64,000 bases of DNA, from positions 5,018,001-5,082,000 of the forward strand of contig OY718805.1 in assembly GCA_963070105.1 (NCBI GenBank), in the 5' to 3' direction. The notes below the pieces were generated by a model. The model worked only from the letters and a program-made list of their open reading frames with translations. It did not search any database and had not been told where the DNA came from. A program made the position numbers and the translations under genes. Shown piece by piece: positions 8,401 to 39,755 of the stretch (the first letter of the stretch is position 1; each line of letters begins with the position of its first letter). Origin of the DNA: Litomosoides sigmodontis (taxonomy: Eukaryota > Nematoda > Chromadorea > Rhabditida > Onchocercidae).

Positions 8401-9055
8401 CGAATTAAAAAACGAAAAATGGGAGAGTGTGATGCAGTGCTCGCAGATATTTGTGTACATTGTATAATAACAAATTTGTTGATTGACACTTTGATGCCAA
8501 TTTATTGCCCATTTTTTCAGAACCGATTTTGAAGGTTTTGAGGAAGGACTTTCCACAATAATCATATTTGATGTGATGGCTAATATTTAAATCCTTTATG
8601 CATAACTTTAAATTGTTTGAATTCTAAGCAGCGAATTACTCGATGGCTCTTAATTAAAAGCAGCAAACCTGACAGCCATTACTGCCCCACTTTTTTCTAC
8701 TTTTTTGATGGATTCGTTCCTAACGGATTACTTTCAATATGTAGAAAATGCAAGTAACAAAAGCGATCGACTTGCTTATTTCTGGCAACTGTCACATAGG
8801 GGTTCGTTGAATGCAATAAGTGACTTTACTAAATGGTGATAGGACACTACTGACAGGGGAAATTTTCCTTCTTCCTACGTGAACTTCCGCAGTACAGAAC
8901 TGGAAGGGATATTGAAGGGAAGTGCAAAAGCTTTCGACAAATCCATTTCACTGGGCAAACTGTCTCAAAAACCGATTTTCAGTGGAAAAGCTATTATTGC
9001 TTGAGGTCCATCGCTGTGACGGAAATAGTTAGTGCGATAGAATGAATGAATGAAT

Positions 9056-9074
9056 GTTGTCGTTGTCGTTGTCG

Positions 9075-9171
<97 letters not shown>

Positions 9172-9179
9172 CGTTGTCG

Positions 9180-9262
<83 letters not shown>

Positions 9263-9263
9263 G
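9056..9263. repeat. (GTT)n trinucleotide microsatellite
   Basis: About 208 bases of almost pure GTT, interrupted by GTC units at the left edge (about 9058-9076) and near 9169-9180. To the right it decays into GGT/GAT-rich triplets up to about 9400. All three + frames and two - frames stay open across it, giving poly-Cys, poly-Val, poly-Leu, poly-Gln or poly-Asn, the expected artefact of a triplet repeat. No splice-consistent gene was found using it. Confidence 0.95.
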
Positions 9264-10237: not shown

Positions 10238-13200
10238 ATGAGTGAGGGCAATAAAAATATTACTTTTACAAATATTATGGGACAGGTTTGACGACTTTTT
10301 GAAGTTTTCATTTCATACACAATAAGGCATTGATAAGAGTGATTGATTAATATTTGTCTTAACAATTTTGTTTTAAATATTTCTCTCCCTAACATTTCTA
10401 TTTTCATCAAAAAATTAATTAAGAAATCATAGCAATATCTGTAAATTTTAGCTTGAACTACCTTTAATGAGATTGCAATATTAACTGATAAAAAAATTAG
10501 TATTTTTATTTTTCACCTCAAAAATTTTCTTGCAAATCTATGCAGTTTTTTGGAGGGCCGAATTAATCAACTTGGCGGTGTGTTTATAAATGGACGACCG
10601 TTACCGCAGCATATCCGAATTAAAATAATCGAAATGGCTAGTAATGGTATTAAGTAAGTTAAAAAACTTACTGAAAGTTAGTATAGTAACTTATTTTTAT
10701 TAGGAACTACTTTTGCTACTTTTAACTACGCATTTACTACGCATTCTTAATTTTAAATTTAATTTAATTTCACTTTTAATTTGAAAGTTGCTTTTGCCTT
10801 TAATTTTTAATTAAAATAACTTTTAATTACTTTAATTTACTTTTAACTTAGTAACTACTTTTATCTTACTTTAGTAACTGCTTTTGTTAGTAACTCACTA
10901 ACAAAAGTTAGTGTCTTTTTGTTATCAAGTAGTTCTGGGATTTATCATATGTCGCTGGGGCTCAACTTCATCTATAAGGTTTTTTAGCATATAAAGATAT
11001 TGAAAGCTTTAGTTGCTTATAATTGAGTTTAAAAATCTAGGCCTTGCCATATTAGTCGGCAATTACGTGTATCCCATGGAGCTGTGTCAAAAATATTGAA
11101 TCGATATGTCGAAACAGGTTCCGTGTCACCTGGACAGGTTAATTTTCGTTTGAAAACCATATTGCTCTACAATGTAATATTTATACAGTACACATTCGTA
11201 TTTCAAATAATTTCTATGAATTCTGGTTGTCGAAATGGTCATATATAATGTCTGCATGTTGGTAGATCTTTCTATGTCTTAAATATCTTTAGCGGTAGAA
11301 GAAGTGAAAAATACTGAAAGGTTTATTTGGGAGGCATATGGTGCACAATGGCACAGATTCTTTTTTCCTCAAAATTTCATCAGAAACTGATCAAGTTGCC
11401 CCGGGTCATCGCAAGTCGGATTTCGTACCCCCTATCGCGAGATTTATACGCCATTCTTCTAGAGCAGTTGTTGCTGCGCTTTTAGCGCTGTTGTCTTCTT
11501 GATTAGTGAGCAAGGAATAGAATTGAGTGTTCAGGCAGATGTGTGTTAATGAGCGCTTGTGTTGAAATGTTCATTCCTGATTCTTATTTGACAGTTTGTC
11601 AAAAGAATTCTCATTTTTCGAAATTCTGGGTACTTGTCAAACTGGCAGTTAAATTCAAAATTTTCACAGTAGTTTTAAATATTTAAAGTGACGTGATTGA
11701 GATTTGAAGATTTAGAGGAGCAGAGATATTTTTGCTATCAATTCATAATTTTCATTGTCTCAATCGTGCAGTTAACATTCGTTGAAATCGAAGAGACAAA
11801 TTTTCCTGACTTGAAATGAAAAACATTCCAGAATATTTCAGGAGAAAGTATATTGATAGTTGGCATAGTAATTTATTAATATGCCATTCCGAAGGTAATA
11901 TGACTGTCAAGTAATCAATTTATTGTTGAGATACTGCCCCCTTTAATGACTCACTTCAATCTTTTCTGAAAAAACAGTAATTTCAGTCATCTTGAAATTT
12001 ATGTCTAACTACAGATAGGAGGCAATCCACGTTCACGGCTGGCGATTCAAGCTGTTGAAAAGCATATTCTGGAATTAAAAGCAAAATGTCCCGGTCTGTG
12101 CGCAAGTGAATTGCGCTCTTGTCTTATCGAGCAAGAGATCTGTTCCCCGGAAAACGCGCCTACCGTATCTTCTATCAACAGGTGAGTGAGTCTATTTCTG
12201 TTTCCACAACTTTTTGAATTTAAATGAAATGGGAATAATTATGATTATATATTGCCTTCACCGCTATCGTTTTGTCAGTATGTACTTGAGGTAACTGAAA
12301 ATGCAAATTAAAACTTTCAGGCATATTCGATCGAAGAAACTCAACAATTCTAATGACAAAGGAAGAAAAGGAATAAAAAAGGCCTGCCTAAGTCACAGTA
12401 TCGAGCACATCCTCGGTCTACGCACTGGTCTGTTCTAAATTTTCTAAAGCATTCTTTTTATTAAATATGAATAACTGTAGCAAAAAGAAGCAATTACTTA
12501 GATATCATAAATGTGAGGAACATTGTAAGTTCTTTGTTATTCAGGGACGCGGTGAGTACCATTAATACAATAAGTTTTAAATCTATGCATCTCGCAAGTC
12601 GTTCCTTTTTAGAAGTAATTCATCAAATATCAATGCTATTAGTAATGAAATGTAGTAATTCTGATAATGAAATTTGATAAGTCATAGTGGTAATTATGCC
12701 TATAGGAAATTTTTTATTGATGTGTTACACATTTTGGATGAACGAAGGAGTCGAAGAAGGCCACAATCGAATAAGATGTTTCTGATGGCTGTAGTTAAAT
12801 CCTTATTGAGTGAAGTAACTTAAGTTACTTAATGAAAATGTGAAGTAATGAAAATTGAATAACTAATTAGTTAATTGTAAATGAATGATAAAGTACATTT
12901 AGTTAATATTGGTCTGACATATATAAATTGATTATCGGCTTTTATAAGTTGTAGTATTTAAGAAAAGAATTATTTGGACAACGGACAGCCGACGGAATTA
13001 TTGTAGTACTCTTATTAGGTTTACGATATGAAACTGAAAATAGTGTGGCAGTGTTGAGAGAGCAGTGAAATGCTTTTTTCAGACTTTCGGAAGCATTCTC
13101 GAATTAATTTAGTAAAATAATGTGAGCGGAATAAAAGAATTTACCGGCATATTGTTTCCAATTAAGTTACATTCAAATTGGTACATAATTATGGGGCATT

Positions 13201-16200
13201 GCACATCCCTGAAAAATTAATTCATCAACTTTCAAAGATTGCTAAAAGAGCATTGACATTACGGAAGAGAAAAAATGTGGAGAAATTTTATTCTTGAGAC
13301 GGCCATATATTTTGGCAAATTCTCCAACCTTCTTCTACTGCTACACTATTTCCCCTTTTGCATATTTTATCACCATTTTACTACCCAAAATTTTGATTAA
13401 TTTTCCTGATAAGATTCTGATCTTGTGAGGTAATAAATCACACCATTTCGTGGCCAAATGGTTAGAGAATTGTTTATGGAAATACTTCCGTATGTAATGT
13501 CGTTGTACTTCATTTGCGTTAAATGACATGGAAGTGAAATTGTCTACCTTAGTTTTGGAAAATGAATGACTTTGAAATGTTCGGTGCAGATGTGGATAGA
13601 ATTCCATTCCTGATAGGTAGAATGCAACTGAGTAATTTGTCATTGGTTGCCATCCCATCCAACTATTATTCATCAATTGCGCAATTTGCTTCACCTTATC
13701 AAGTGAGTGTATCTCACCTGATTGAGTCAGTAAAGGAATGTCACAAGTGACGTTTCCATTGGCCAATGAAAAATTAACAAACCATTGAGTGCTTATAATT
13801 TGAAACAAATTGTAACACAAAAATTTCATTCCACTCGCACTAAATTCGTCTTTAATTGACACGCACACACACATACGTGTAATACGTATTGCAATATGTA
13901 ATAGGCATATTTCTAATTTGTAACCTTAAATTGTAGTTGAAATCAAAGATCTTATCATATCATAATTGTTACGGTTGTTATTGTTGTTGGTGTTGGTGTT
14001 GGTGGTATGGTGGTGATAGTGGTGGTAGTGATGAGAGTAGTGGTGATAATTATGGTGTTGAATGTCTCATACATGTCGCAAGCGTTCAAAGTAAATGCAA
14101 AACTAATTATCAGAAGCGCAATCTGTTGTTATCTATAGGAATGAGTATTACTGAGGATTGTCCATATTTTTGCCAAACTAATCTTATTAACCACTTTCCT
14201 GCTTTGTTGGCACGCGACCTTCCCCTCCTAATCATCCAATTGCCACCAAGTGTAATCCTCTTTTTGCGCTTCACAAACAGAATACGCAGCGTCGGCAATT
14301 TTGTCTTACATCAGTTACGGCTTAAACAATTTGTTACCTCTTTCTCAGCTGAAAAGCTTTCCGCTTTTCACTGAATGAATTAGTTACTCAGCATGCTTCT
14401 TGGAAGGTTTACAACAATGTAGAAGGTATTAAGATCTATATTCCTCATTCATAGCTTGAAGTTACTTCTCATCAAAACAGTCTTGAAAGGTCCTAATAAA
14501 CTGCCTCAATTACACCAATGTTGCAACGGCGCAATGCTTGATTAAAACATTCAAAAACAAATATTGAAGGATGAGAGTGTAAAGCAATTAAAAAGACGTA
14601 AACTTCAATACAGGCGCATTTGTTACCTTCTCATTTCCGCCTGAATTTTACCTCTTTTACCCAGTTCTTCTCTCGAAATTGCACAGAAATTATTATTTGG
14701 ATTAGTTTGCTTTATTTACTCGGCCTTCCTTTGATCAATGCAGTAGTTGGCCTTCTCAAACATACTCATCCACATTCGCTACCGTATCCAAATAGATGAA
14801 ATCACCGTCACACTCGCCCTTACCCATTGCGACAACAACGCAGTGATTTGCAAACTCTTGAGGGGATAAATTTTTCTCCAACATTTATTCTCTCTTATTA
14901 TTCACTGCTCCGTTTAATTATATAAGTATTCTCATCCAATTTTTTTGCGGAAATTTTTAATTTTTCAAGAATTGTTCATGTGGGCGATAAGCTGAAATAA
15001 GTTTTAAATTTAGCAGAAGACGATGGACCGGAAACATCAGAGAGAAGTTACTCGGAAGGAGAAGGAACCGGAGATGGAAAAAATGGGAATGCTGCAGACG
15101 ATGGAAATGCTGGGAAGAATGGGAGAGTGCGGCGAAACAGGACAAGTTTTAGCAGTGAACAGTTGGAGATTCTTGAAGCAGCATTTAACGCCAACACCTA
15201 CCCCGACCAAGACGAACGTGAACGAATTGCGATGGAAACGAGCCTTAGTGAAGAGAAGATTATGGCACGTGACTCTTCCTATCCCAGTTTTTGACTGATT
15301 AACTGCGATCAGTCACACACTCCACTTTTATCAATAATTTTGTCATTTGAGGAAATCTTTTTTGAACACCTCAGTGTTCTCATAGTGAACGAACATTTAA
15401 TTCCTCGAACTCAAAAAAAAAAATTGCAGTATAGAAACATTATATTGCAATTTCCAGTAAAATTTTTTCTGAACTGAAATTTCTCATGGATATCTATAAA
15501 GGAACCACAAATTTTTAGACTTGGTTCAGCAATCGACGAGCACGTTGTAGGAAGAATTTTGCTTTTGCGAGTGCCAGTCCACTTTTGATTCAAAACGTCG
15601 CACCCATGCCTGTTGTGTCTCCTCGGTCATCCATACGACAGGTTTGTAAACTAATTCTTTTTTAGATAATCAAATGCCATTTTTGAGTAATTGCGCAACA
15701 TTATATTGTAAAAGTGAAATTATTTTGTCACAACATTATTGTAATTTGGAATTTAAACACAAATAACGACAAACTTGAAGTTGAGAAGTTCTCAATCTTT
15801 TGACTTGAAACGTTATTCAAATGCAGATGCAGCAGTGTATTCCGTATCCAAAATTATTCTCTAAAGGAAGACGGACAATGTCAGCTGAGCGAATTGCTGT
15901 CTTAGATGTCCAAGCTTTCATTTCTAATAGATGAAGGATATTGAAGGATAAACCATTAGTAGCTTTAGGGATGCTAAGAAGAGCTTAATTTCCATATACA
16001 GATGACATCGACCATCTCCTCTTTACCATTCGAGCTCGCAGCTCCAAACTTTCCGCAAATTGTATTACTTTCGTTTCAGCAAATGACAAGTGGGATAAGG
16101 TTTCCTGGCTACAAGCTGTTTCATTGGTACAGCTAAGATTCATGAACTAGTTGATTTGTTTATCTGTTCGAAAGGAAAAAAATTATTAACACACAAAAAA

Positions 16201-16404
16201 TGCTTAAAATTTAAAGTTTTTGATTAATATTTTAAATTTCAACTTTATTTCGTCTCTAAAAGCTTATTTCAGACGGAAGCAATGCCAATATTTTCATCGC
16301 AAATAAATTTACTTCCGTATCCTGTGAGCCCAACATCACCAGTGAAGTTTCAAGATCCATCCAGAGCATCCATCCTTTTTTATCCTCAGTATGCATCTAT
16401 ATGA
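10238..16404 (+). CDS. Pax3/7-type transcription factor, copy 1 (paired domain + octapeptide + homeodomain)
   Basis: Confident exons: 10238-10285, 10556-10653, 11041-11137, 12015-12181, 12321-12427, 15014-15264 and 15519-15641. Likely tail exons are 16002-16061 and 16273-16404, making about 360 residues; another possible terminal exon is 15827-15934. Residues about 15-137 form a paired domain with Pax3/7 hallmarks ([31 protein letters not shown]). An octapeptide HSIEHILG lies at 162-169, followed by an acidic Gly-rich linker and a homeodomain at about 211-270 with Ser50 ([11 protein letters not shown]). As a nuclear DNA-binding regulator it should act in ectodermal or neural patterning, like C. 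elegans pax-3. Oddities: Cys for Trp at homeodomain position 56; the intron at 15265 begins GC, not GT; the acceptor at 10555 is GAG. The 2.6-kb intron before the homeodomain contains a long antisense open frame. Confidence 0.88.
10660..10930. repeat. Degenerate short-period repeat in intron 2 of Pax copy 1
   Basis: This stretch is built from imperfect copies of ACTTTTAATT- and TTAGTAACT-like words and ends in a short hairpin, CACTAACAAAAGTTAGTG. It looks like expanded simple sequence and is non-coding. Confidence 0.5.
12428..15013. other. Large intron of Pax copy 1
   Basis: A 2.6-kb intron joins the octapeptide exon to the homeodomain exon. It contains a 177-codon open frame on the minus strand (13341-13874) and a GTT/GGT-rich stretch at about 13975-14060. 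A 145-codon plus frame crosses that stretch and is probably a repeat artefact. No domain is recognised in either. Confidence 0.6.
15265..15518 (+). other. Candidate GC-AG intron inside the copy-1 homeodomain
   Basis: The matching intron of copy 2 is phase 0, between homeodomain residues 46 and 47. In copy 1 the same place reads ATG|GCACGT...TTTTTAG|ACTTGG. Removing a GC-AG intron gives [14 protein letters not shown], in perfect register with copy 2. Using the nearby GT (15269) gives a stop soon after and no helix 3. Confidence 0.7.
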
Positions 16405-18090
16405 CAATTACTATTTCATTTGAGTAATACTGTTCCATTGTATTCACTCCTCTCTTGTTCCGATCTGATCTAAAACGAGAGGTCTAGATTGATACGCAAT
16501 GAATTGCGATGATTGTGGGTCGATTTAGGATTTTTATCTTATCTAACTGAGCAGACATAAAAAAAGTGAGAAAAAACGTCCTTCCGCCGTGGAGAACAGA
16601 AACATGTGGTATTTAATTTATGATTTATGTCAACCATATGCACTACAAACAGGTGTAAAAATCGAAGCTTTCATTCATTTTGTCATTTTCATGAAATGGA
16701 TGAATGGGCAAAATGGGTGTCGTTGTAATATGATGTAATTATTTACGAGATTCCGTTGGACATTCTTTTTTGTTTCATTAACTTTCCACTTGAACTGGTA
16801 GGTTGGAAAATATTGAGATACTCTTTACAATGATACTGCCATTCAATGCAGAAGTCTAAATAAAGATTTTGCAGCGAGATGAAAAGAGATAGGAAGATCT
16901 GTCGACCACCTAACTTACCACATTTGCAGTTACTGGTAGTCACTGGACTAGTCTGTGCAGAAATAATATCATTAAATTCCTGAATCACATAAGCGTATTT
17001 TTTTGCAACTGTCTGGAAAAGGGAATGCTACCTAGAAAATTATCCATCATTATTTTGCGCATATCCTAGTGTTCAGTCTATCGAAATGAAAGAAGTTAAG
17101 GGACCATTATTAACAGCCTAGTGATATCACCTAGCAAAGTTTATCATATCACCTAGTACTCCTGTCAGTTATAAATGGAATGGTGAAAATGGGAATAAGT
17201 GAATCTCCAATAAACTACCGTATTAAAATGGTTCGCTAAGTGTGACCCTAACCGAGTCCCATATTTAATGAAACATGGCTAACATCCTTGAGACGATATG
17301 CAGATTTTTAATGTTCGCTCCTGGAAAGTGATGATTTAAAATAGTCCTTTGTTTGGCGGTGAAAAAATGTGCCGCACAGATTCCTTTGGAACAGTTTCCA
17401 CAATGCTGAAACATCATTTTTCAAATCGAAAGTTCCGACCACAATGAAGCAATAGTTATCCATCATCTTTTATTGCATTTTCCAAATCCATGCTGATACT
17501 TCTTCCTCCTCATCCATTATCTTTACTCATTCCGATATCGACGATCAATGGATGAGCTCGATGATGAATTAATTAATATTTGTCTTGATCTTCACAAAAT
17601 GGGAAAAAACGATAACGATCAACCGGAGCGTATACTATTATGCTTCACACATCAGCGCGGTGAGAATGAATATTAAGACGAGAGGAGAGGTGTGAGTAAC
17701 CTTGTCATATGACCTGTCGCTGTTTGCACACGCACACACCTCAGAAAGATCGTAATATTGATAAAGATTTTCAATGAACTTAATGACTGACCGACTAACT
17801 GGAAGGCTGAACGAAAGAATGAATAATTAGACGACTAAGAAATTCAGTAATTAATTGATAAACTGCAAAACTTGCAGAACATCTCATCAGGATGAAAAAT
17901 GAAGCGCACCAGTCTGAATATGACATTTCCAGGAAGGAACTCGAAGCTTTGCAATAGTTCATACTACTCTTTTCTGTTGCACTTTGAAATTTCTGTTTCA
18001 TGAAGAATGCAGCTTGGACTACTAATCTATGGTACTTATGCAAGACAGAAGAGCACCGGAAAAACTGCCAAGCAAATAAAACTTTGATTC

Positions 18091-18126
18091 AGTCTGATCT
18101 GATCAAGTCTGAAGTCTGATCTGATC
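18091..18126. repeat. Short tandem duplication rich in GATC
   Basis: The 14-base word AGTCTGATCTGATC occurs at 18091-18104 and again at 18113-18126. Confidence 0.85.
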
Positions 18127-20491
18127 TTTGATCTACATATATACACATTAAAATTACGCGTGATTTATTGCTTGGCTCAATGAAAGCAAACTTTGTCGGA
18201 TATAATTAAGTTACATTTATCCGAAACTACACTTCCGTGCATAATAAATGCTGATGGATCATCAAAGGATACCGTTGTTATGTATACGTTTTTGTCAATT
18301 ATCAGTCGTCCTTTTATGGTATCAAAGGTTCAAAGAATGACGGAATTTAGGTATTCAATGATTACAAGTTGCAAATTTCAGGGATTGGAAAAATTTTTTG
18401 CCACAAAGAAGGTACTCAGCGGAAGTGTGGGAACCCAAAATTGGAGCTTTTCAATGAAGAAACAGCAGGAGACGCGCAATGACGACAGCGAACCTGTAAA
18501 GATCAACAAAAATAAAGTGTTAGGTTGAGGTTGTTTTGATAGCTAAGGCACTGCTTCACTGAAATCACTTCTCCTATCACTCCCTTCATCAATCATCAAT
18601 TCTTCACCGAAAAGGTCGTCTGGTGCTTTTCTCATATTAATTTATCAAATATATAAGTGTAATTTATTTGAAACCAATTATCGCCTTCTTCCCTACACAG
18701 TTCATGTAATCAAAGGCACTATGATGTGTGTATCTGTGTAGTTGAACAAATTGTCCTTGTTGTGGTTGGCCTCTCTTTATGTCATTCAATATTTTTTACA
18801 CTTCAAATCATCAAAATCAAAGCAAAAAATCATTGAAAACTGTAAGGTCAAAAAAAATTACCACTTTTTCATTTCTCTTCATGAGCAGAAAATTCGAAAA
18901 GTGCCGCCGGTCTGAAAACGATTAAAACGACACTTCATAATTATATATCAATTTTTTGGTGCGGGCAGGGAAAAATGACTTTATTTGGAAAAAAAACCAT
19001 CCGAAACACAGTCACAGCTGCTGGAGTATACACTGCGCTGCTCGACTATTATCGCTTTGTAGACCGTCACTGCCCGTTTAATTTATGTTTTAATTTATTA
19101 ATTCCGATAGAAAACTGATATATCACATTCTGGGACGGGTTTTTTGCATAATGAGCCGACCGAAACCTAAATTATTCCAAAAGAGGAGAGACGGAGGAGA
19201 GGTTTCTGGTTGACAAGGTGTGAGAGGGTAGTGTTTTGCGAGGTTTTCCAGTATTTGTGAGTTGAAATGGGTGATTGTTTGCCATTTCCACCCTCTCGCT
19301 ATCTCTCACTTCCAACGATAATTGTAAAACAGTTCGGATAATTAGTCGGGAATGGGGTCTTTTATGAAAAAGGAGAAACTATTTGCTCCTCTGAAATTAG
19401 TTGATACCTTTTTACGTATACGTACTTGATCAATCTCATTTTGAAACGATTGTCTAGTGGAGGAGAGTCACTGTTGACCGTTCCATCCTTAACAAGAACA
19501 AAGGGCACTCACTGGTGATAACTTAATTGTATGTTTCATTAGCCGTTGGTATGATTCATGTGGGACTATGTAGTGACGTAGCATTCCAATTTTGGCTGCA
19601 TTTTTCACAGAGGACAAGTTGCTGGATAGGCATGGCATACGCACATCGCTTGGAAGCACAAAGCAAAGTCAAATTTGTTTGACAAGTTGAGGAAAAAGGT
19701 CGTTTGCGTTCATTAATTTGTTCAGGAAAGAAAATAAAATGAAACACCATATTTGCTTGAAAAAAATCACTTCTAATTCGTAATTACTCAACCGCTTAAA
19801 GCATAAGTTTCCATCATAAAATGCCATTGAAAGAAAAAATGAATGGGTCAACAAAAACTTAATTAGTTAGACCACCGGACATTGGTTTGCCAGTTGGTGT
19901 TGGTAATAGCGGTCAGTATAGTTCTGGTAACTGTTGCAGGCACACAGGATGTTCGGAGAAGTTAGAACCGAAAAACTGGACCTGAATTGACAGTGCATTA
20001 TTGTAGTTAAAATTTTTAGAAATGAAACATAATGCGAATTTTTTGCTTTCACTTTTGCTGTTCTTTTCTTGACTTTGAGCGATGCAAAAGCGAAATAAAC
20101 ATTATATCAAATCAAGAGTAGAAGAGTTTGCTTAGTCAGTCCATTCCTCATTTATAGTTGATCTAAGTTGCAATTAGAACGAGATCCAAAAATATGACAG
20201 GTGACACAAGTAGACAAGAAGTGAACCAGCAAGAGTAATGCTGTTGTTGTAAAGCAAAGAATGCTTTCCTCAACCTTATAAAAAATATAAAATATAATAA
20301 TATTTATATAAAATGTAGTAAAATGTTTACCTTTATAATAAAAATGTAATATTAAGATGTGATTTCTGTGAAAGTACGTCAACATTCAGGTGGGTCTTAA
20401 TAGACCGTTAAGGCTAGCAGCTCGGCACACAACATTTTTCCAATTCTTACAAGCATTAATCGTACTCAAAAATATTTGCCGGAAAGTTTGA

Positions 20492-20622
20492 CTAAATTAC
20501 TTCATATCTTAAGTATGAGAAAACATTAGGAGGTTTTTCCGTAGCAAATTCTTGCTTGAAATCATTCAAAGAAGTCGAATGGACGGACATCTTTGAGGTA
20601 ACAAAGATATGAAGTAATTTAG
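20492..20622. repeat. Perfect 19-bp inverted repeat with 93-bp spacer
   Basis: CTAAATTACTTCATATCTT at 20492-20510 is the exact reverse complement of 20604-20622. It may be the termini of a very small foldback/MITE-like element, but no flanking target duplication is evident. Confidence 0.8.
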
Positions 20623-22452
20623 TATATATTTAATATATTTATATATTTAATATATAAATATATTTAAGCCCCATATATTTAAGACTTAGGTATTGCTTCA
20701 AAATCTTAAAACTTGAAAATCAATTAATTTGCTGTAGTTTTTTCCTAAATGTTAGCTTTAACCTGGCATTCCTCACGAATTTCATAAAAAGAGGTTTTGC
20801 TTAAGCTAATTTGGCTACACATATCACAACTTCTGTAGCTGTCCTGTGACCGAGTATTATTTTTTTTGCAGACGAAGTCGAAGTTTAGTCCCATCAAGAC
20901 TTCTGTCGATTTTTATTAGTTTTAAAAATCAACTTTAATAACTCTCATTTCTCGAGCAAATTTGAATGAAGGAAATTCTGCGTTTTGAGGAACACGAAAT
21001 CACTACAAAACGCCTTTCAAAGCTTAAAACTAAACCTTAAGTGTATATTTGAGGAAAAAAACCTGAACTATTACCTTAGACGGGTGCGTAGAGTGCTAAT
21101 ATCTCTTTTCCCATCTACAGTCACGTAACTGTGATTACTTTATTTGAAATGTTTAATGGTAACATTTGAATTTTTCATACCTGTTTGTTTGTAACCTTAA
21201 ACACATTGCATTTTCCCAGCAGGGCGGAAGTTCAGGGCATGCTGCAATAGTTTGTTAAACAAATTTGCCGCTGCAGTTTACATCAAATTAGAACATAAGT
21301 TGACATTTCATTAAAATTTTTCTTCACCAGATGTATGGCTAAGAGGAGATTTGAAAGATGTTCAACAAATTTTTGGAGTTTAAGTTAAATCAATATGGGA
21401 GTTAAAAGTTCAGTGCTGGATCGGATCAACATTTCGAGAGTTACCCTTTCATCAAATTTAGCTTAATATTTAGAAAAACTCACGTGCACATAATTGTAGC
21501 AAGCAAAAATCGAAGTTGTTCTGCGTTAATGAACTTTTCTAGAAGCTAATTCTAGATATTTTCTTCATCAGACGCTTCATGCCAGTGGTATCTGTTCTGG
21601 CCGTGAAATTTGCCATTTCAAATCTCTCATCATCTCCCTTGATATTTTCAAGTGAAGTGACGAACTTTACTAGGTAATATCAAATCTTACTACACACTGC
21701 TTCGCTACTTCCACCTTTACTTCACTGCAGTTGAGCGTGGAGTCTTTCTATAGCGACGATAACGACGATGACAATGAATACGATAATGATAGTGATGAGG
21801 CGACTGATAAAGGTGAGGGTGACGTAGAAGAATTTGCAGTGTTCATCTGTGTTTGATACGGTACTTAATGGTGTAGTAGTTGGGGTGTTCGGTGGCAGAC
21901 CTGTAAAACCGTAGGACCCTAAATATGGAGGCGGGGCGGAAACTCAACAAACACACTCGCACGAGAGATTTTTGGGTGGTTAGTAATGCTGTGATCGGTT
22001 CTGGCAGCCTATAATTATCACCCACCCGTCAACAAAGCGAACTACTGGTAGGAAGAGGGGGAGGGGGAGGGTGCAGAGGATGTAGGAGGATAACAGTTTA
22101 CCATCGAAATCCCTTGATAACCTGTACTGTTTGTGGCAGATAGACGACCTGTCTAAGGACGATAAGAGAGAAAGAGGAGGCTAAGAAGCAAAGTGAGAGG
22201 TTAATTTTATGTGCGTGTGTGTATATCTATATAATGGTAATTGCAACCACACGGACATGGAACACTCATATTTTCGGATACGTAAAAATGGTTTCAATCA
22301 TAGTAGGACACTCCCACCTCTACGCACCTTTTGGACAACCGACGCCTCGCACATCAAAATTATCATTCCTTTTTTAAATAATCGGTAAATGGTGTGAATT
22401 GGTTATTGAAGTTTTTGTTGTTGTCGCTGCCATTGGTACTACCAGCACAGTA

Positions 22453-25400
22453 ATGGCGTGTACCACAGGTAATACCGCTACTACTGCAATCAGTACTACT
22501 ACCGCTATTGTTAGCGATACCGCGGCACTAACAACCAGTCATCATTCTTTCACATTCGCTAATATTATGGGGCAGGTAAATTTTCCCTTAAATTAGCTGA
22601 GATTCTAACTGATCGTCGACGCTTCGCAATTTCTTACACATTCACCGCTTTAAGTTGCGCTCTTGACGGCGACCGTCCTAGAACAACTATCGTTAAATTA
22701 AATTAATCTCTCTTAAATCTTTGAAATTTCAAAAATTACATGAAGTTTGTGGCACTGGCTCGCCCGCTCACTTCACATTCGTTTCCGAATGATTTCATTT
22801 CAAAATAACTGTATTATTTTATTAAAGCCAAGTGACTCTTACATTAATGGTAAAGTAGGAAGGAAATGCCCAATTTTTCATTAACATTGAGTGCCAGCAT
22901 TTCGACCTCTTCCACTCTCTTACTCAAAATTCGGCTGCTAACTAAGCTCTTGCATTTCTTAAAATTATTTAATGAAACTATTTGCTATCCAACATTTCCG
23001 ACCTGCACTAGTCATAGCTTACTGTACTTGAAAACTGGCTAAAAAGCAAGTAACTACAGGGTCGAGTGAATCAACTAGGTGGTGTATTTATCAATGGCCG
23101 CCCGCTACCTCAGCACATCCGATTGAAAATTGTTGAAATGGCTACCAACGGTGTGAAGTAAGTGCAAGCTTTACCAGTCATATCAAATATTGCAAGATTT
23201 TGCTACAACCGCAGTGATAACCGCACGACTATCACTTAATGTCAGTATCGTTGTCAATACTGTAATCATTTCATCACGTGCAGACAGATAATTATTTACA
23301 AACTGATTTTTTTCAAAAGCACTTATTTTTTTAATATCCGAAGTGAAGTTGAACAGTTATGAAAAGTGGTGAATCTTTTTTTATGCTCTAAAATTTCCAA
23401 ATACGATGCAGTCGCTAATAAATTCACACATGTTAATCCGAGAAAAACTTCCATACTTGATGAACCAATCTATCAATCTCCTCTATAACTACTGTAATCG
23501 GCATTTTACAAACTGTTAAAGTGCTGTATAAGTAGATCGACCCCTCCCTACATATACAATTTGTTTAAAATTCTTCTAAAATGAAAAAAGTTGGATGGAT
23601 CATAGTAACGATCACAGGAAGTATCAATTCTCTTCGCACACAAATAATTCTTACAATTTTGATCGATAGCTTAACCAGTGAATGAATTAGATTAAGTATT
23701 CAACAGTTGTTGCGATCACAAATTTTTTGAATTAATTTAACTACAGACGCACAGCATTCCAGAATCGGCTAACACTTTAAAGGCAATGAATTAAGCAAAT
23801 AGCTTTAATGAATTATGATTGAAAGGGAAAAGTTAAATGAGCGCAACGGAAGCTAATGACCTCTTTCTGGCATAGCAAGCGTATCATTTAGTTGAAATGA
23901 CCGATGTAAGAGCAGCGGTTCCATGCAACATAATTTATTTGAAGAAGCAAACTGTGTACTTCACATCTAGCAACTTTCTTCTCTCCTAGCCCCTCCTCAT
24001 TCCTTTCTTAATGACACTTTTTTGGTCATTAAATTTAAGAGCGCTATTTATTTTCCCTAACCTTTTTTGGCACTAAAGAAAAGCGTTTCACGGGTGGTCT
24101 TTTTCATTTTGTTCATTTTTAAAGATTTTTTTTGGGTTCACATCTGTGCGAGGAATGTGCTGCATAAAAACGATCCGCTCAGAAATTAAGCATAGCAAAA
24201 CATCCAGGAACTGTTGGAAGGGATTATATCACCTGAAGAGAGAATAGATGATTATTAATAATTTCAAAGTAATTCAACTTTTCCGTTTTTTCTTAATTTT
24301 GTTTGCCAAATTCCGGTGAGAAATGCTTAAAAAAATCCTTTCAGACCATGTCATATCAGCCGACAGTTACGCGTTTCGCATGGTTGTGTATCAAAAATTC
24401 TATATCGCTATGCTGAAACCGGATCCGTATCACCCGGACAGGTTTGCGCTTTCGATTTGCACACGCTCCGTATGCGAATTTAATCTGTCAGCAGCAGATA
24501 ACACGCCGGAATAATTTTGCTTTGAACAGTCATAGATAATTAAGCGCTTTTGACACGACTGTTCGCTTGTGTCTAACCCAATATTTTCTTTATCGAACTT
24601 TCACATTTCCATTTTTGGTAGATCGTCCCACCACCAGTCTGGGCTGTAAGCTCTAGGCTGTAAGCAATTTCGCGTTCACTTAATATCATGGGCTAAATAA
24701 ACATCATAAGGTGATCGGTCATTTTCAACCTTATTCGGTGGCGACCTCATTTGAATATTTGAAAAAGTAAATTTAGTGTTCGTAGAATAGAAAAAAAGAA
24801 TAAGTGCAAGTGCAATTATTTTGTGAGGAGAAAAGGATTAACGTTCGTTGGATTCATTCATATGACTCATTTATTTTATTAGTTTATAAATATAAAGAAA
24901 GGAAAGTAGCAAAATTGTTGATATCCTTAGGTCTTTCTAAGTACTCTCTCTCTCTCTCTGACTGCAAGTTTCATCTGTAAGTAAGAAATATAGTGAGTCG
25001 AATAAGTTAGTGCTTTTGATAGAAGTAAAAAGTAAAAAGCTGATATTATGAGGTTCCAATTAAAGTGTGTTCTAAAGAGGGCATTCATCTCTGGTCGCAT
25101 AATGTGCAACCTGTGGGTCCTTTGAAGCACCACCGCTGAACTACCTTCAATCACTGTATTTGTAAAATTGCTGTTCACAAAAAATGAGTTTGTCAATGAT
25201 TTGTTGATTGGGTTGTTCGTATTGACAATGTGTTACTGAAACATTTTGCTTTATTTTTGATTCCCAAATGGGCCATTAAATTTGCATGACTGCCACTAAT
25301 TGCTCGTATTAAAATGTCGTAAAGGAATTGTATTTGAAGATGGCACAATATCTACAACGCACTGATTGGATGCTTCACAAAAACAACTATCAGTTTTTGA

Positions 25401-28065
25401 ATTCCTTAACAAATCCCCTCTACTTCAAGCAATTCTGTGTGAAGTTTATTACTGAAAAGTGAAAAATACCGTATTATTCCCACCTTCTCGCCACTTCTTT
25501 TTTCCTACATTAATTTTTCAAAAAATTGCGCTTGTTTGATGCCAATATATTTTTCATTGAAATTAACAAACTCTAAAAATTATTCGCCCTAACAGTGCAA
25601 CAATAATTTATTTTATGCACTAATTGCCCTTTGCAGCTTCATAACGTCCAACATTTCATATCACTTTTTATTAAGCTTTTATTTTCGATCTCCAAAATTC
25701 ACCCGTTAATTGCAACAACGATGGAAGAAGTTTAAGATCGGTGGTAATCCACGATCACGTAAAACGATCTTGGCATTGGAGGAACACGTGGCACGAATTC
25801 GTCATGAAAGGCCCACTATCAATGCTCATGAAATTCGGCTAACGCTAATTGACAAAGGGATATGTAGTCGTTCCAACGCACCAACCATTTCTTCAATTCA
25901 CAAATACATGAGGTTGTTAGTCTATCAAAATATTCAACAACCTTCTTGCAATTTTTTTAAAAAACAAAGAAACATTGCAGGATTTGCAAGTAAGTTATTG
26001 GTTCGGCTGATTTTGAAGTGTGTGTCATTTTGGATAAATAGTTTTAAAAATTATTGACAACCAACAAAAGCAGGTATTACAGAGAGAGGAGCGTGCGAAG
26101 TGAAATTCGAAATCAATACTCCTCAAAAACTTTTACATTGAAGCAACCAAAAGCCTTTACACTGAAACATAGCATAGAAGGCATTCTCAGTACCTCTGCA
26201 GGTATTAACTTTCGTTCATAATCAAAATAGCCACAAAATGTTACAACTTTGTCGGACTTAACAACTGCGACAGTTGCGCAACAACGGAAAGCATTAGAGA
26301 AATCAATAGGCATTTACTGTCATAAAAGTGAACAACGATAACGATAGCTTTCGCTGTTATTTTCCTAAATGAGTGCTAAACATTTAGCTTAGTGCGTGCG
26401 CTTCATTTGTCTTCCTGAAAATACCTGAAAAATAGCACACCCTAAATTGGAGAGAAGAAATTGGTAAAAAGCACCCATTGCTGTTGGCTGCAATTAAAAT
26501 TGCCATATAAGTAACATAAGGTATAATCAATCGGGGATGATCGTTTAGTTAATGACATGCTAAAGTATAGTTTTCTTGCTACTGTTGCTGCTGTCGCTGT
26601 CGTTGTTGTTGTTGTGAGTAAACGAAAGTGTAATTTTTTCGCTATGTAAGCGATGATTTCAAGAATGCAAGTGGGCTGACTAATTTTTGCTTCCAAACCA
26701 GTTACATGTATAATTAATCTTAATTTGCATGCTTTTGGAGAGGCGAATTCGCCCGTCCGCCAATTTTTAGAGTGAGTCGTCACAAAGTCGAAGTTGTGGT
26801 AGTAGATTATTGGGATTTGATCCTTTAAAATTTCCCCTAATCACTCGGTTCTTCTTTCAAAAGCTAATAAAAGTAGTCTTTTCAAACTGCTATTTCTTCA
26901 TGAAATTTAAAAATTGTTTTAAATTAAATCAAAGTCGAAATTAGCTCTAGTGCTTTTGTACAGTTGAAAACCCGTAATTTATAAGAAAATGAAAAGCAAA
27001 TTTTTTAGTTTCCTACTTAACAAACAGCAAACCAAACAGGAAATGCTTTTTGGAAAGACGGAAGTGTTTCGTTATTTATTCTGCAATAGCGCATAATTTG
27101 AAAAACGCTTCTGTTTTGTTGAATTTTATATTAAAGTAATATTTGACAAATCAATAACAGTTCCTTACTGCTACAGGAAGATGCGATAATACCGAACAAT
27201 TAGTATCGGATTGCCGAACAGAAATGGTCGGAAGGGCTCGACGAAATAGAACAAGTTTCACGCAGGAACAGTTAGAGATATTGGAAGCAGCTTTCAAAGC
27301 AAACACCTATCCGGATCAGGAATTACGTGAACGCCTTGCTGCAGCAACTAAGCTAGATGAGGGTAAAATACAGGTTGTATCATATTTTCTCTTATATGTT
27401 ACATGCGATTACGCACCTCTAATTCTTGAACTTATTGCTTTTTATACTTTATGGAATATTTTGAAATCAAAAATTTGAAAGCTGATATTCAATTTTATAC
27501 GACCAATGAGTGAAGTTGCTGCATTCGCACCTCCCAACTGTATTATCTAAAATACTTTTTTGCAATTAACCTATTTTTCAAATATAATATTTACACTTTT
27601 GCAGGTTTGGTTTAGCAATCGTCGGGCGCGATGCCGGAAATCTCTAGCAACGTCGGCATCCCATCCATTCGTATCTTATCCAACTACTTTCATGCCTTTT
27701 TTGCAAGAGATGGTAGAGTAATTTCTGATTAAAAAATGATTTTTAAATATACTTTCTCGTGATTCACCGTTGTAAGGTCTTGAATTAAGCATATTATTAT
27801 GGATTTTAGAAATTATCAAGTTTCACAGTGTCAAATTTCAAGACAACAGAATGTTGTTATATAATATTAGAAATTCAAAGCTAGCAGCTTTTCAAAAAGG
27901 TTCCAAATTTAATTTTTTTCAATTTAGAATGTTTTATCATCGTCAAGATTTGATGTCGGTGCATCCCTTCTGCTGAATCCACGTATGGCTGCAGCCGCTG
28001 CTGCCGCGATATACTCAATAAGCTTTGCAGATTTATCATCACTTCTAGCACCACCAAGTCGCTGA
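22453..28065 (+). CDS. Pax3/7-type transcription factor, copy 2 (paired domain + octapeptide + homeodomain)
   Basis: Eight exons join in frame: 22453-22575, 23060-23157, 24345-24441, 25737-25912, 26083-26201, 27177-27373, 27605-27712 and 27928-28065, giving 351 residues. A Thr/Ala-rich leader of about 35 residues precedes a paired domain at about 40-165 ([37 protein letters not shown]). The octapeptide HSIEGILS is at 194-201 and the homeodomain at about 225-284, with Ser50 and Cys56 ([12 protein letters not shown]). A seven-Ala run and a short hydrophobic end follow. It should be a nuclear regulator like its neighbour 6 kb upstream. The acceptor of exon 4 is TTTAAG. Exon 5 could instead begin 9 bases earlier at 26074, also in frame. 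All intron phases (0,2,0,2,1,0,0) match copy 1. Confidence 0.92.
24943..24959. repeat. (CT)n microsatellite
   Basis: A short uninterrupted CT run in an intron of Pax copy 2. Confidence 0.8.
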
Positions 28066-32933: not shown

Positions 32934-35900
32934 TCAAACAAAATATCGCATATTTTGCAGTTTTGCCGCTTCAAAGCCCACAGTTGTTGTTCGTGGTAAC
33001 AGATATCTCCCGTACAGTTCCAGCTGTTCTGCAGACTCTTCAAGAATTCCAAGCGCTTGTAACACTGGAAGTAACGGTGGCTTTCGTGAATGAATTGCAG
33101 ATGGAGTGCTAAAAAAAATTATGAATTCACCGAAAACAGTAGAAAGTTATGATGGTAAATTAGCTTTATTAAGCAGTACAAACAACTGAACATAGGTGTT
33201 GGTAAAGGTGAACCCTGTCAACATAACACCCATCAACTATTAGCATAAAGTGCTGATAATGATGAACTCGAAATGCTATTTTTGACAAGTCCATTCGGAA
33301 GACATGGAAAATTCTGAGTGTAACTCAATCAATAGGACATAGCATGTCAAAAACATTAAAGATTCGGGAATGACAAGCTTGATAATCAAAGGAGAAGTTT
33401 ACGTAGAACATGACACCTAAACTCAGTTCGTTTGTTCTTTTTGCATATTTGACTATATCTTTTTAGGAGCAAAAATTTTTGGGAATATGTCTCTTAAAAC
33501 ATGACTTAAAATGTGAGAATCCTTCCTAAAAGTAAAATGTCATGGATATTCAAAATGTATACCTGATTAAGACAAATTCATCGACGACCTTCATATAACG
33601 CTTGTGGGCTTCACTTCTGGAAGCAAATACAACACTTTCAAAAGGTTGTTTATGGTGGCTATTCAGACTGTAAATGGGTTCGCCACTGTTTGTCACCTAA
33701 AAGCTTGCAGAAACTACAAGTAGTACATGTACTATAACGCATCGGAAGGTAGAATCAGTAATGCTTTGAGTTTGATCACTAAGTTAAAATACAATGTTCT
33801 TTTAAATCGGATATTAATTTCTTGTCATTTCAAGTTTAAAATACCCGTTCGTTCCTAAGTAATACCACAATCACGAATAATTCAAACTGACGAATGAATC
33901 ATAATTGATTCTGGTATTACTTAGGAACGTTAGACATTTTAAACTTGAAATGACAAGAACTTAATGTCCGATTTAAACAAAGTTTAATTCAGTCTAATAA
34001 AAACAGGTTTGCATGGGCAAAATTTTAACCCATTGGAGTCTTACTTCAGCTAAGTGTGTCCAAATCTTTCATATAAAAAATCGAGAAATGTGTGAACACT
34101 CCAAAAAAAACCTTAAGGTACATTTTACGGGACCAAATATGAAAACCAGTGGTAGTAAAACTAACTTTAAGCCACCGCCAAGTGGCAATTTTTTCCATAT
34201 CAAAATATTCAATAACATTATCAACAAATTTAAAGTGCTTTTCATTGTTTGTAACCCATATTGCTAACAATCCCATTTCTGTTAAAAGTTCCGGTAGATA
34301 CAAGTGGGACATCCACATTTGATCCTGGTAAGTTGGATAGCTGTAAGACGCATCGTCAAAATTCTCAACAGAATTGGATATTCTTTTATTTTTAGCTATA
34401 AAATTTTGAAAAGTATTAACTATTCCAGGAATATGTCAACTAACACAATTTTCCTCTTAACAGATTTATTATCCCACGGCGGATCCAATAATATGAAATC
34501 AAATTGTTTCCCATCTGAAACGAATGTTACATTTTTCAGTTAACTGAAGTGTATTTGAAACCAACAGACCTTAAAAAAGTTCGTCAAATGTCATCAAAGT
34601 GCTATATCGGAGAACGGACATGATTTACTACCTTCAAAAACAAAGCGAAAAAGATTTTTCAGCATAAGAAAACTGGTCAGAATTAAGCAAATCGTCTGTC
34701 CATATATAAACTCACATTTGAGCAGTGATCTCGATACACACGCATCGTTAATGATGAAGGATGATGATGGAGGTAAGATGAATTTTTCATCCTTGCATTC
34801 GGCTATAATAACTTTTGGTTCGGCATTTACCCAAATTATGAGTTCATTTGAATTATCATCAATAATTCTAAAATCACATATATATAAGTATCGATAATAT
34901 TATACGAAAACTAATAAAAAATATTTGAAGAAGGTTTAAATGTTAACGTAAACAGCAAACTCACTGAAAAAACCTCAGAAACGAGAAGACAAATTTCGCC
35001 CCTAATTTTTAAGCGTAAAACCTAAACCTAAATAAAAAATCACCGAAACCACCTCTTTTCTTCATTTAAACGTATTTCTTTGATGTTTTGTTTTGTAGCG
35101 TACGGTTGTCTCGTATAACGGGACAGTGGACAAGGAACTGAAGTTAAAGCGAAAGCTAGCTGCCGTGCTTGACAATTGTTGAAGTCCAATGAGGCCTCAT
35201 TGGAAGAACATGGTGTCAGCTCGTACCGATTTTTGTTAAATGCGCCCATTGCAACTGCTCTTTCTAATATCTTCTTTAAAACAGCGCTAACCTAAACAAA
35301 ATTTCAAATGATTCTAGAAGCAACGTGAAGCAAAACTATAACAAATCCATTGAAACTAATAAAAAATTAAGCAAATATGCAAATACTTTAAGAGTAGAAT
35401 GAAGTTCGATTAGCTTTAACGAACAAGATTTGTTCGTCGAATAACTTAGTGAAGTAGTAGTAAAAATATTAGAACGATTGCTTCAAAAACAGCTATTTCC
35501 TGTAAAAAATCGCTAATATACTTCTAGTAAATCGCAACAAATATTTGAAGATATGCCGCGTTTTCGTCTACGCTTCCGCTTATTTTCTCTTGCGATAGAC
35601 ACCTTTTCAGATAATGCAGCAGAAGCCTGCGAATCCATTTGAAATGGCGATTCTATTGCATAGAACATCCGGTTTGGCACACTAAAAAAATATTCGCTCG
35701 AGCAAAATCAACGTGTTTAAAAATTTCGATAAAAATTTTGAAAAATCGATAAAAATTTTCGGTTTCACGGTTATGGAAAATTTGTTTGATCTGTATAATC
35801 TGCAAGTTCGGCAGTTCTTCAAGTAAAAGTAATACACCCATATACAACATCAATTTATTGCTCATGTCTATGAATCTTAACTGCATTTCACTAAATTCAC

Positions 35901-36967: not shown

Positions 36968-39755
36968 TCAGTAGGCAGTTTCTACAGAAGGTGTTACTGA
37001 AATTACTTCTACTGCAGCACGTTGTGAAGACGAATACGAAGAGTGCGATCGTTGTTCGAAAGTAACGTTAACGAAGAAGAACGCAAATACACCGATAATT
37101 ACAGCCAGTACCTTAGATAGGCCTTGCTTTATATCATGCTCATGAGCACTTAATTCGGAACTCAGCATCTCAACACATGCAACATAAATGAACGTTCCAG
37201 CTGCGAATCCTTCCAACACAAATCGAATCAGCAATGCAGTGAATGTTTTCATGGAATTTATCTGAGAGGAGCAAACTTCTTTTGAATAAAAAAAATTTTT
37301 AATGAAAAGTTACTTACGATAAACAAATACAGGAAGGATGCAAGAAAGCTCGTATAACATTTTTTTTATAACAATAGGTAATATCTCGCACCTCTAAGTT
37401 CGATTTGAAAATAGGAAAAAACCCTTCCCACATTATCTAACCGATAAGAAAAGGTGAATATTTAGTTTCCTATACCTATCAAATAATTCTTTGACAATTG
37501 AACTTACTATAATAGACGTTGACATACCCATCGGAATACTACTTGCAAGCACCACTGATGAAATAAATGCTCTTCTTGGAGTAGTATTTTGTTGCGCTAA
37601 GCTAACACCCAAGGCAAATGAACAGAGTACTTCATGGATCATAATGGCGATTAAAAGACTGTAGAACTCTGTTGAGATCAGCTGCAAATAAATACTGAAA
37701 CCAAATTTTGCAGTAATTTGTAAATCATTCAAAGAATTATATTCCTTACTGTGGGAAACTAATAACTAAAAATTGATTATTTCATGCAAATACCATATAG
37801 ATTTAGATTCAATTAATAACTACTGCAGCAGTAAAAGCGGAAGTGATTGGAAAAGGTTCTGGTGAGAAGTAGAAATATATAACACTGTGATCATGATGCT
37901 GCAACTATAATCAACTAAACTTTTGTATGGGGCGCATGAAATATGCTTAAAGCGAAGGAAACACATATGAATGCTTCATAAGTCTAGAAGGCATAAGTCG
38001 GTTTGTAAATGATAACAGAAAGTACGGAAATACAGAAAATTTGGCAAAAGTTGCATTTTAATTAATATTTAATTAATTTTAATTAATATTAATCATGTGC
38101 CTTTGTTATTTGTGATACTCTTCAAAAAAAGAGTATGCTAGTAATGATGGTAACCTACACAGACCACTGAAACAAAAAGAAACACTTACCGACGATCCTA
38201 ACGCGATGCCTTCAAATACTGAGTGTGTTAAAAGACCAAACAATAAAACAAATGAACTAAGTGACATGTCCGGTGAAAGAAAATTAGTATGAGAATGTAT
38301 ACCATGGTTACGTCTTTGAGAGGCCTAAAATGTTTACAAAATATCTTTGGATGTAGAATCATCTTGAGATCAATGACCACTTTTTAATTAATGATATACT
38401 CATTGTTATTAAATACTTTTTTTAACAAAATTGTTAAAGTGCTCAAACAATTCTGAAAATTTGCACACATTTTTTATTAATATCAATGTCCTCGAACAAT
38501 AATTAACATGTTCTTGAAAAAAATCGGTTTGAAAAGCGCAGAAAATGTGCCCGACATTCGGAAGATACACTACTTTTAATAGCAACTTTACTTGCCAATA
38601 TTGTCTCACTTAGGCAAAATAAACCTTATCATTGAAATGCCGAAATTCAATTGCTACTGGATTATCAGCTCGAGCAGTGAAATCTTCGGTAACTGCATTA
38701 TCTGAGAAGAGCAATTCAGTATCCTCATCCCATCTTACCGAAGTTGTGGTAGTGTTTAACACATTCTCAGAAGATTTACTGCTTGACGGTATCCGTCTCA
38801 TTTGAGCGGAATATTTCAGCATTCTATTAGAGCCAGATTTGTGAAACACATGGACCACCTAACGATATACAAAGAGCATTATTGAGAAATGTAAGCAAAC
38901 GTTATAACGATCACTTATAACAGAATTATTGTCCAATGCCTAAGCTAAAAAAAAGAATTATTTTCATTAAGTAAAAATCATTTTCTCGACAAGAACAAAT
39001 AAAACGTATGGACACAAAAATATTTCCTCATCAATAAGACTAACTACTTAACTGCCATCAGTAAATGCAGATATTTTACGTTCCAGTGAGGATCTGATCC
39101 ATTCTCGTTAAACACACCAAAAAAAGATATGAGAACCCTACCTCTTCAAGGAGAAGTATTAAAAGAAAGCCCATCAAGACAATCAATTCCGAGTTTAAAA
39201 AGATATGCGAAGATAGATCAGAGTGACCAGCTGTTTCAGTCCACAGACTTCGGATGTGTTCTTCATGTTTTCGGATATGTGGCAGGAGGCCAAGGAAACA
39301 TGACGACAAGAATATGCCACAAGCAAAGCAGTTACTCAGTGAAATGGCATGACCTCCTTCCCTGCAAAATTTAGCAAGTTAGTAAAAGTGGCAACCTATA
39401 GCAACCTAAAGCATTATAGTTAGTTTCGAAATTTCTGCCGAAACAAGGGACTGTCTTTTGCATGTATAAAAATTGTTATAAATGCAGGTAAAATAAGTTG
39501 AAAACAAGATAAACCTGTTCGGAGAAAATTCAACAACAATATTGAAATCAGAAAGTATGTGAACTGACTGGGCGGACTTACGCATTATCTTCTGCAAAAA
39601 AAAAACCAAAAAATTGCACCTAATCAAACTTACTCGGTGTGATCCTTCACTCGCATTCGTTGTTTCAGCATGCAATAACTACCAAATGTTACAGAAAAGA
39701 GTACCACGAATATAATACAACCCCATAAAAGGCACAAGAGACTAAATAACACCAT
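36968..39755 (-). CDS. ZIP family zinc transporter (SLC39, ZIP1-3-like)
   Basis: Six minus-strand exons: 39634-39755, 39142-39361, 38625-38858, 38190-38324, 37508-37681 and 36968-37261, all in frame, 392 residues. The N terminus is a membrane segment; the second exon gives FLGLLPHIRKHEEH and a third hydrophobic helix. A long polar loop of about 80 residues (exon 3) follows. The ZIP signature is clear: HSVFEGIALG (His226) in one helix and HEVLCSFALG (His253) in the next, the residues that line the metal path. The last exon has FVLEGFAAGTFIYVACVEML and a Ser-rich tail. ZIP proteins import Zn2+ (and some Fe/Mn) into the cytosol from outside or from vesicles. The subfamily is judged from the signature; plasma membrane versus organelle cannot be decided. 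Confidence 0.92.

What the first reader, a model, noticed from the sequence alone, without database searches (positions are those of the whole stretch)
10238..28065. Two complete Pax3/7-type genes in tandem
Both copies encode paired domain, octapeptide and homeodomain, on the same strand, 6 kb apart, with equivalent introns in identical phases (0,2,0,2,1,0,0). That is direct evidence of tandem duplication. As I know it, C. elegans has a single Pax3/7 gene (pax-3). The copies have diverged (different linker, N terminus and C terminus), so both have probably been kept for separate roles.
Basis: partly seen in the sequence, partly recalled or inferred. Interest (0 to 1): 0.8.

Follow-up and report, generated by a model that had tools for sequence, protein, structure and literature searches.

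The report
Ancient tandem Pax3/7 gene pair
Two neighbouring control genes of the Pax3/7 family in a rodent filarial worm look like an old pair that several other roundworm groups also carry, while the model worm C. elegans appears to have kept only one of the two.

Summary
The window (Litomosoides sigmodontis) carries two Pax3/7 genes on the + strand: A (10238-16404, 340 aa) and B (22453-28065, 351 aa), 6,048 bp apart, each with paired domain, octapeptide and homeodomain, and seven introns in phases 0,2,0,2,1,0,0. Corrections: intron 4 lies three codons apart, and intron 6 of A needs a GC donor.

The history needs revising: the duplication is not private to this worm or to filariae. In a tree of 73 proteins, A-type genes (39 rows, 97/95) come from Spirurina, Tylenchina and Rhabditina and include C. 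elegans PAX-3; B-type genes (20 rows, 87/71) come from Spirurina and Tylenchina only. Duplications private to filariae/spirurids, Toxocara or Steinernema are rejected (p 0.0005, 0.008, 0.0016); one spanning all Spirurina is not (0.068), and without five diagnostic columns the Spirurina copies group together. Fixed differences lie at paired-domain residue 49 (A Ala, B Cys) and homeodomain residue 47 (A Thr, B Val). Best reading: a tandem pair from the rhabditid ancestor, still linked in filariae, Steinernema and Ditylenchus, B lost on the C. elegans line. No expression data were available.

The parts
10238..10285 (+). copy A exon 1 ([16 protein letters not shown])
   Evidence: agrees with P0121
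10556..10653 (+). copy A exon 2, paired domain
11041..11137 (+). copy A exon 3, paired domain with Ala49 and Asn55
12015..12181 (+). copy A exon 4, paired domain C-terminal half
12321..12427 (+). copy A exon 5, end of paired domain and octapeptide HSIEHILG; donor chosen to match D. immitis P0024
15014..15264 (+). copy A exon 6, acidic linker and homeodomain residues 1-46
15265..15518 (+). copy A intron 6, GC-AG (ATG|GCACGT)
15519..15641 (+). copy A exon 7, homeodomain from Thr47 on
16273..16404 (+). copy A exon 8, C terminus and stop
   Evidence: like C. johnstoni P0018
16405..22452 (.). 6,048 bp between the copies; the one ORF tested here (18184-18525) has no Pfam match
22453..22575 (+). copy B exon 1 (start uncertain: public P0001 adds 65 residues from upstream exons)
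23060..23157 (+). copy B exon 2, paired domain
24345..24441 (+). copy B exon 3, paired domain with Cys49 and Tyr55
25737..25912 (+). copy B exon 4, paired domain C-terminal half
26083..26201 (+). copy B exon 5, octapeptide HSIEGILS
27177..27373 (+). copy B exon 6, linker and homeodomain residues 1-46
27605..27712 (+). copy B exon 7, homeodomain from Val47 on
27928..28065 (+). copy B exon 8, C terminus and stop

Best explanation
The two genes are old paralogues of one Pax3/7 gene that was tandemly duplicated before Spirurina, Tylenchina and Rhabditina parted, and they have stayed side by side in several lineages. Both encode transcription factors that would bind DNA with a paired domain and an S50 homeodomain and carry an octapeptide of the kind that recruits repressors. 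Copy A is the orthologue of C. elegans PAX-3 and has changed recognition residues (paired-domain Cys49 to Ala, homeodomain Gln46-Val47 to Met/Ile-Thr). Copy B keeps the residues seen in arthropod, mollusc, annelid and vertebrate Pax3/7 at those sites. Inferred, not shown: A carries the epidermal role of PAX-3, B keeps ancestral-type DNA binding in other cells (a neural or ventral-ectoderm role is my guess), and B was lost on the line to C. elegans and its Rhabditina kin.
For: Tree of 73 proteins, 184 columns: A-type 39 rows one clade (97/95: 8 Spirurina, 12 Tylenchina, 19 Rhabditina), B-type 20 rows one clade (87/71: 12 Spirurina, 8 Tylenchina) (a wider tree of 79 rows gave 96/94 and 82/63). 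Paired domain alone, which does not contain the homeodomain letters by which rows were labelled, gives the same split (A 92/79, B 95/80). Duplication private to 17 filarial/spirurid rows p 0.0005, Toxocara p 0.008, Steinernema p 0.0016, Tylenchina p 0.02. Residue 49 of the paired domain and residue 47 of the homeodomain agree in 64 of 65 nematode rows with a full homeodomain. Majority-residue count: 3 columns fit the paralogue pattern, 1 the clade pattern. Tyr55 is derived in B, Ala49 and Thr47 derived in A. In a search with 12 B-type proteins all 21 B-type nematode rows listed rank above the best A-type row, and no Rhabditina row listed is B-type (12 of the 21 rows were in the query; best 120 of 7,944 listed). 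Both copies conserved between genera: A paired domain 125/128 and homeodomain 59/60 against C. johnstoni, B 121/128 and 57/60.
Against: Duplication across all Spirurina is not rejected (p 0.068), nor is one shared by Spirurina and Tylenchina without Rhabditina (p 0.216), nor B being paraphyletic (p 0.408). With the five most diagnostic columns removed the Spirurina A and B rows group together (88/92) and the split is no longer clean, though filarial-only duplication is still rejected (p 0.026). The paired domain without columns 49 and 55 does not reject one Spirurina clade (p 0.236). Homeodomain alone does not make B one clade. Groups were named after the first tree was seen, which weakens the test p values. 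One A. besseyi protein (P0135) has A-type paired-domain and B-type homeodomain letters. T. canis copies lie on different contigs. Shared contig length is only a proxy for linkage. The GC donor could mean a weakened copy A in this worm or a base error in the assembly.
Confidence: 0.75

Rival explanations
1. Separate tandem duplications in the ancestor of Spirurina and within Tylenchina, with the same recognition residues arrived at independently.
For: Spirurina-wide duplication not rejected (p 0.068); without five diagnostic columns Spirurina A and B group (88/92).
Against: Needs the same letters at paired-domain 49 and 55 and homeodomain 46 and 47 twice, including the derived Tyr55 in all 20 B rows; Tylenchina-only duplication p 0.02; paired domain alone splits by paralogue.
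Confidence: 0.12
2. Ancient duplication followed by partial gene conversion between the neighbours in Spirurina, which made parts of the copies alike while the recognition residues stayed distinct.
For: The conflict between diagnostic columns and the rest and between paired domain and homeodomain trees.
Against: Only 1 column fits the clade pattern at the 60% majority level; the homeodomain trees have few columns and low support; no exon-wide near-identity between A and B here (paired domain 88/128, homeodomain 44/60).
Confidence: 0.1
3. Recent duplication in filariae with both copies kept, as the first reader's contrast with C. elegans suggests.
For: Tandem, same strand, equal intron phases.
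Against: Rejected by AU test (p 0.0005); orthologues of each copy in Toxocara, Steinernema and Ditylenchus.
Confidence: 0.01
4. Copy A is decaying in this worm: a broken donor in the homeodomain would leave a paired-domain-only protein.
For: GC donor with poor flanks; the public L. sigmodontis A model stops inside intron 5 (P0121).
Against: Open frame over all 8 exons and 59/60 homeodomain residues as in C. johnstoni; three other A models (P0122, P0123, P0124) also stop after the octapeptide with unlike tails, which looks like a gene-model artefact at a long intron.
Confidence: 0.07

Closest known systems
C. elegans PAX-3 (P0051) and other Rhabditina pax-3
   Same: Orthologous to copy A; same Ala49, Asn55, Met46, Thr47. 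The title of Thompson et al. 2016, seen only in reference lists, says it chooses between lateral and ventral epidermal fates.
   Different: No B partner among the protein lists seen.
Drosophila gooseberry / gooseberry-neuro
   Same: Neighbouring Pax3/7 paralogues kept side by side (recalled; the title of Baumgartner et al. [quoted passage not shown]
   Different: All 14 outgroup rows, arthropods included, fall outside the nematode A plus B clade (100/100), so the nematode pair arose separately.
Vertebrate Pax3 and Pax7
   Same: Same subfamily and domain order; two paralogues.
   Different: Separate duplication, not tandem (recalled); no Thr47 or Ala49 in the two vertebrate rows used.
Steinernema hermaphroditum QR680_001099 and QR680_001100
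   Same: One A-type and one B-type gene with consecutive locus tags.
   Different: Tylenchina, not Spirurina; strand and distance not seen.

Membership tests
Pax3/7 | complete paired domain | tested here: met
   A 1-125/125 and B 1-125/125 of PF00292
Pax3/7 | octapeptide between the domains | tested here: met
   HSIEHILG and HSIEGILS; by a loose pattern 12 of 15 listed relatives have one (misses P0046, P0054, P0035)
Pax3/7 | complete homeodomain with Ser50 | tested here: met
   1-57/57 of PF00046; WFSNRRAR in both
Pax3/7 | groups with Pax3/7 and not with other Pax subfamilies, paired domain | tested here: met
   97/94 split, forced move of A rejected p 0.0002
Pax3/7 | same, by the homeodomain alone | tested here: inconclusive
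   B homeodomain scores higher with Pax6 (67.5 bits) than with Pax3 (64.4); A scores Pax3 56.7, Pax6 55.8, but ALX4 and PITX2 higher
C. elegans pax-3 orthologue (copy A) | clade with PAX-3 excluding B | tested here: met
   97/95, but the split weakens without five diagnostic columns
C. elegans pax-3 orthologue (copy A) | same expression or function | not testable with these tools
   no RNA or mutant data

The most novel reading that the evidence does not exclude
C. elegans PAX-3 is the derived half of a lost pair. In the rhabditid ancestor one copy fixed a new recognition surface (homeodomain Thr47, and loss of paired-domain Cys49, which would blunt redox control) while its tandem neighbour kept the bilaterian one, and filariae, Steinernema and Ditylenchus still run both, perhaps from shared control DNA that keeps them adjacent.
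Probability: 0.35. Interest if true: 0.6.

Novelty: new member of a known kind. Interest (0 to 1): 0.45.

Why it matters
Pax3/7 work in nematodes rests on the single pax-3 of C. elegans and Pristionchus. If the pair is ancestral, that single gene is the altered copy, and the copy with ordinary Pax3/7 letters survives in parasitic lineages where it has not been named or studied in anything my ten searches listed. The pair also parallels gooseberry / gooseberry-neuro, giving a second, independent case for asking why Pax3/7 duplicates stay adjacent.

Tried and rejected
Homeodomain-only placement: too few columns and ambiguous between Pax3, Pax6 and other paired-type proteins. A domain in the interval between the copies: the one ORF tested there had no Pfam match; repeats shared by the copies' surroundings were simple or short. 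RNA families in the window: none at gathering score. NCBIfam on A: only two transposase models far below cut-off. A scan of viral contigs with one B exon: no relative. Rows dropped: from 86 aligned rows (72 nematode, 14 outgroup; chosen by hand from the lists, leaving out P0059, P0129, P0130 as repeats and P0020, P0032, P0050 as unnamed), seven under 80% filled, then six more (P0161, P0135, P0108 long branches; P0012 fused; P0001 repeat; P0009 partial) gave 73. Deeper nematodes (Plectida, Enoplea) did not appear in the capped lists, so the age of the duplication beyond Rhabditida is open. No dN/dS: no coding DNA of other nematodes is held.
Full report
What is there. The window is from Litomosoides sigmodontis: a public protein of that species contains the whole B model, and the species is a filarial nematode of suborder Spirurina. 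It lies at G000:C3:5018001-5082000 of a 65.9 Mb assembly in 7 contigs. Copy A spans 10238-16404 and copy B 22453-28065, both on the + strand, with 6,048 bp between. Each has eight exons. One search gave first drafts of 335 and 354 aa. I then moved the exon 5 donor and exon 6 acceptor of A to fit D. immitis P0024, and the exon 5 acceptor of B to fit public P0001, giving 340 and 351 aa.

Domains. On the drafts, Pfam PAX covers 1-125 of 125 in both and Homeodomain 1-57 of 57 in both. Octapeptides are HSIEHILG and HSIEGILS. The best solved relatives of draft B are the Drosophila Paired, Pax5, Pax8 and Pax6 paired domains.

Introns. Phases are 0,2,0,2,1,0,0 in both. Introns 1, 2, 3 and 6 fall at the same residues; intron 6 splits the homeodomain between residues 46 and 47. 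Intron 4 has equal phase but lies three codons further on in B. Intron 6 of A begins with GC; within the stretch searched, the only other frame-keeping donor, also GC, would cut the homeodomain. The public A model P0121 stops in intron 5, so this intron has no support from L. sigmodontis annotation; it is supported by A-type proteins of other filariae that read KIMTWF across it.

Other Pax genes. A PAX search of the assembly scored 17 candidates and gave 16 exon matches at seven loci (a lower bound). Besides A and B these are Pax2/5/8-, Pax6- and Pax1/9-like loci and two divergent paired domains. The subfamily names of these five are mine, from similarity. In a paired-domain tree of 36 rows A and B sit with Pax3/7 (97/94), and forcing A with Pax6, Pax2/5/8 and Pax1/9-like rows is rejected (p 0.0002). 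The homeodomain alone cannot decide.

Relatives. Searches with B and A listed orthologues of each copy in filariae, Thelazia, Toxocara, Steinernema, Ditylenchus and others (best 120 of 4,448 and of 1,976). I aligned 72 nematode and 14 outgroup rows. With 79 rows and then 73 rows the tree shows an A clade (97/95) of 8 Spirurina, 12 Tylenchina and 19 Rhabditina rows including C. elegans PAX-3, and a B clade (87/71) of 12 Spirurina and 8 Tylenchina rows. Suborders were looked up for six species and are recalled for the rest. A and B labels were set by the homeodomain letters KIMTWF/KIITWF, so the fair check is the paired domain alone, which gives the same split: A 92/79, B 95/80.

Tests of age. 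Duplication confined to 17 filarial/spirurid rows p 0.0005; Toxocara p 0.008; Steinernema p 0.0016; all Tylenchina p 0.02; all Spirurina p 0.068; Spirurina plus Tylenchina without Rhabditina p 0.216; B paraphyletic p 0.408. Groups were named after seeing the tree, so these p values are optimistic. That Rhabditina and Tylenchina are closer to each other than to Spirurina is recalled; given that, a pair shared by Spirurina and Tylenchina must predate Rhabditina, and its single gene implies loss. Against this, removing the five most diagnostic columns groups Spirurina A with Spirurina B (88/92), and the paired domain without columns 49 and 55 does not reject one Spirurina clade (p 0.236). That removal takes out just the columns that separate the paralogues, so it is biased, but it shows how few columns carry the deep signal. 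A majority-residue count found 3 columns in the paralogue pattern (paired domain 49 and 55, homeodomain 47) and 1 in the clade pattern.

Diagnostic residues. Paired domain 49 is Ala in 39 of 39 A rows, Cys in 20 of 20 B rows and 14 of 14 outgroup rows; 55 is Asn in 37 and Met in 2 A rows, Tyr in 20 of 20 B rows, and Asn, Gln or Cys in outgroups; homeodomain 46 is Met or Ile in A, Gln in B and outgroups; 47 is Thr in 39 of 39 A rows, Val in 20 of 20 B rows and 14 of 14 outgroup rows. Over all 65 nematode rows with a full homeodomain, 49 and 47 agree in 64; the exception is P0135 of A. besseyi. Homeodomain 47 is a DNA-specificity residue, and a Thr/Ile change there interacts with residue 54 in LEUTX (PMC6258689, passages). 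Oxidation of two of three paired-domain cysteines lowers PAX8 DNA binding (PMC10931086, passage); that one of them is the equivalent of Cys49 is recalled.

Linkage elsewhere. S. hermaphroditum tags are consecutive and S. carpocapsae tags four apart. D. immitis model P0012 runs from a full A into B exons 1-2, which fixes order and strand there and is best read as a merged gene model. T. canis copies are on different contigs.

How it probably works. Shown by sequence: two intact reading frames whose DNA-binding domains are far more conserved between genera than the linkers and C termini. Inferred: both are DNA-binding regulators with partly different targets. The orthologue of A in C. elegans is named as a skin-differentiation gene (PMC8073016, passages) and, by a title in reference lists, chooses lateral or ventral epidermal fate; a myogenesis role in Pristionchus appears as a reference title (PMC5333810, passages). 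B has no studied orthologue in what I saw.

Print. Ten full-text searches, of open-licence papers only and mostly seen as listings, showed no paper on a nematode Pax3/7 pair; subscription papers were not covered. The proteins themselves are in public databases, several named only as paired-box or gooseberry.

Verdict. A true, well-made observation. The pair is a member of a known gene family and not a new kind; its interest lies in its age, its retained linkage and what it implies about C. elegans.

Noticed in passing
window 9055-9263: A (TGT)n array of about 70 copies about 1 kb upstream of copy A; the public A model P0121 takes its N-terminal residues from the sequence just after it.
   Followed up: no
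window 36968-37765, - strand: Two exons matching ZIP zinc transporters.
   Followed up: no
window 34046-34435, - strand: An exon matching the MT-A70 methyltransferase family.
   Followed up: no
window 61840-63846, - strand: A 668-residue open frame, coiled-coil-like by eye, with no Pfam match.
   Followed up: no
protein P0012 (D. immitis): Public 'Pax-7' model that merges copy A with exons 1-2 of copy B.
   Followed up: partly
proteins P0121, P0122, P0123, P0124: Public A-type models that end just after the octapeptide with unlike tails; probably intron read-through in the annotation, though a paired-domain-only isoform is not excluded.
   Followed up: partly
protein P0135 (Aphelenchoides besseyi): A-type paired-domain letters with B-type homeodomain letters on a very long branch: fast evolution, exchange between copies, or a bad model.
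   Followed up: no
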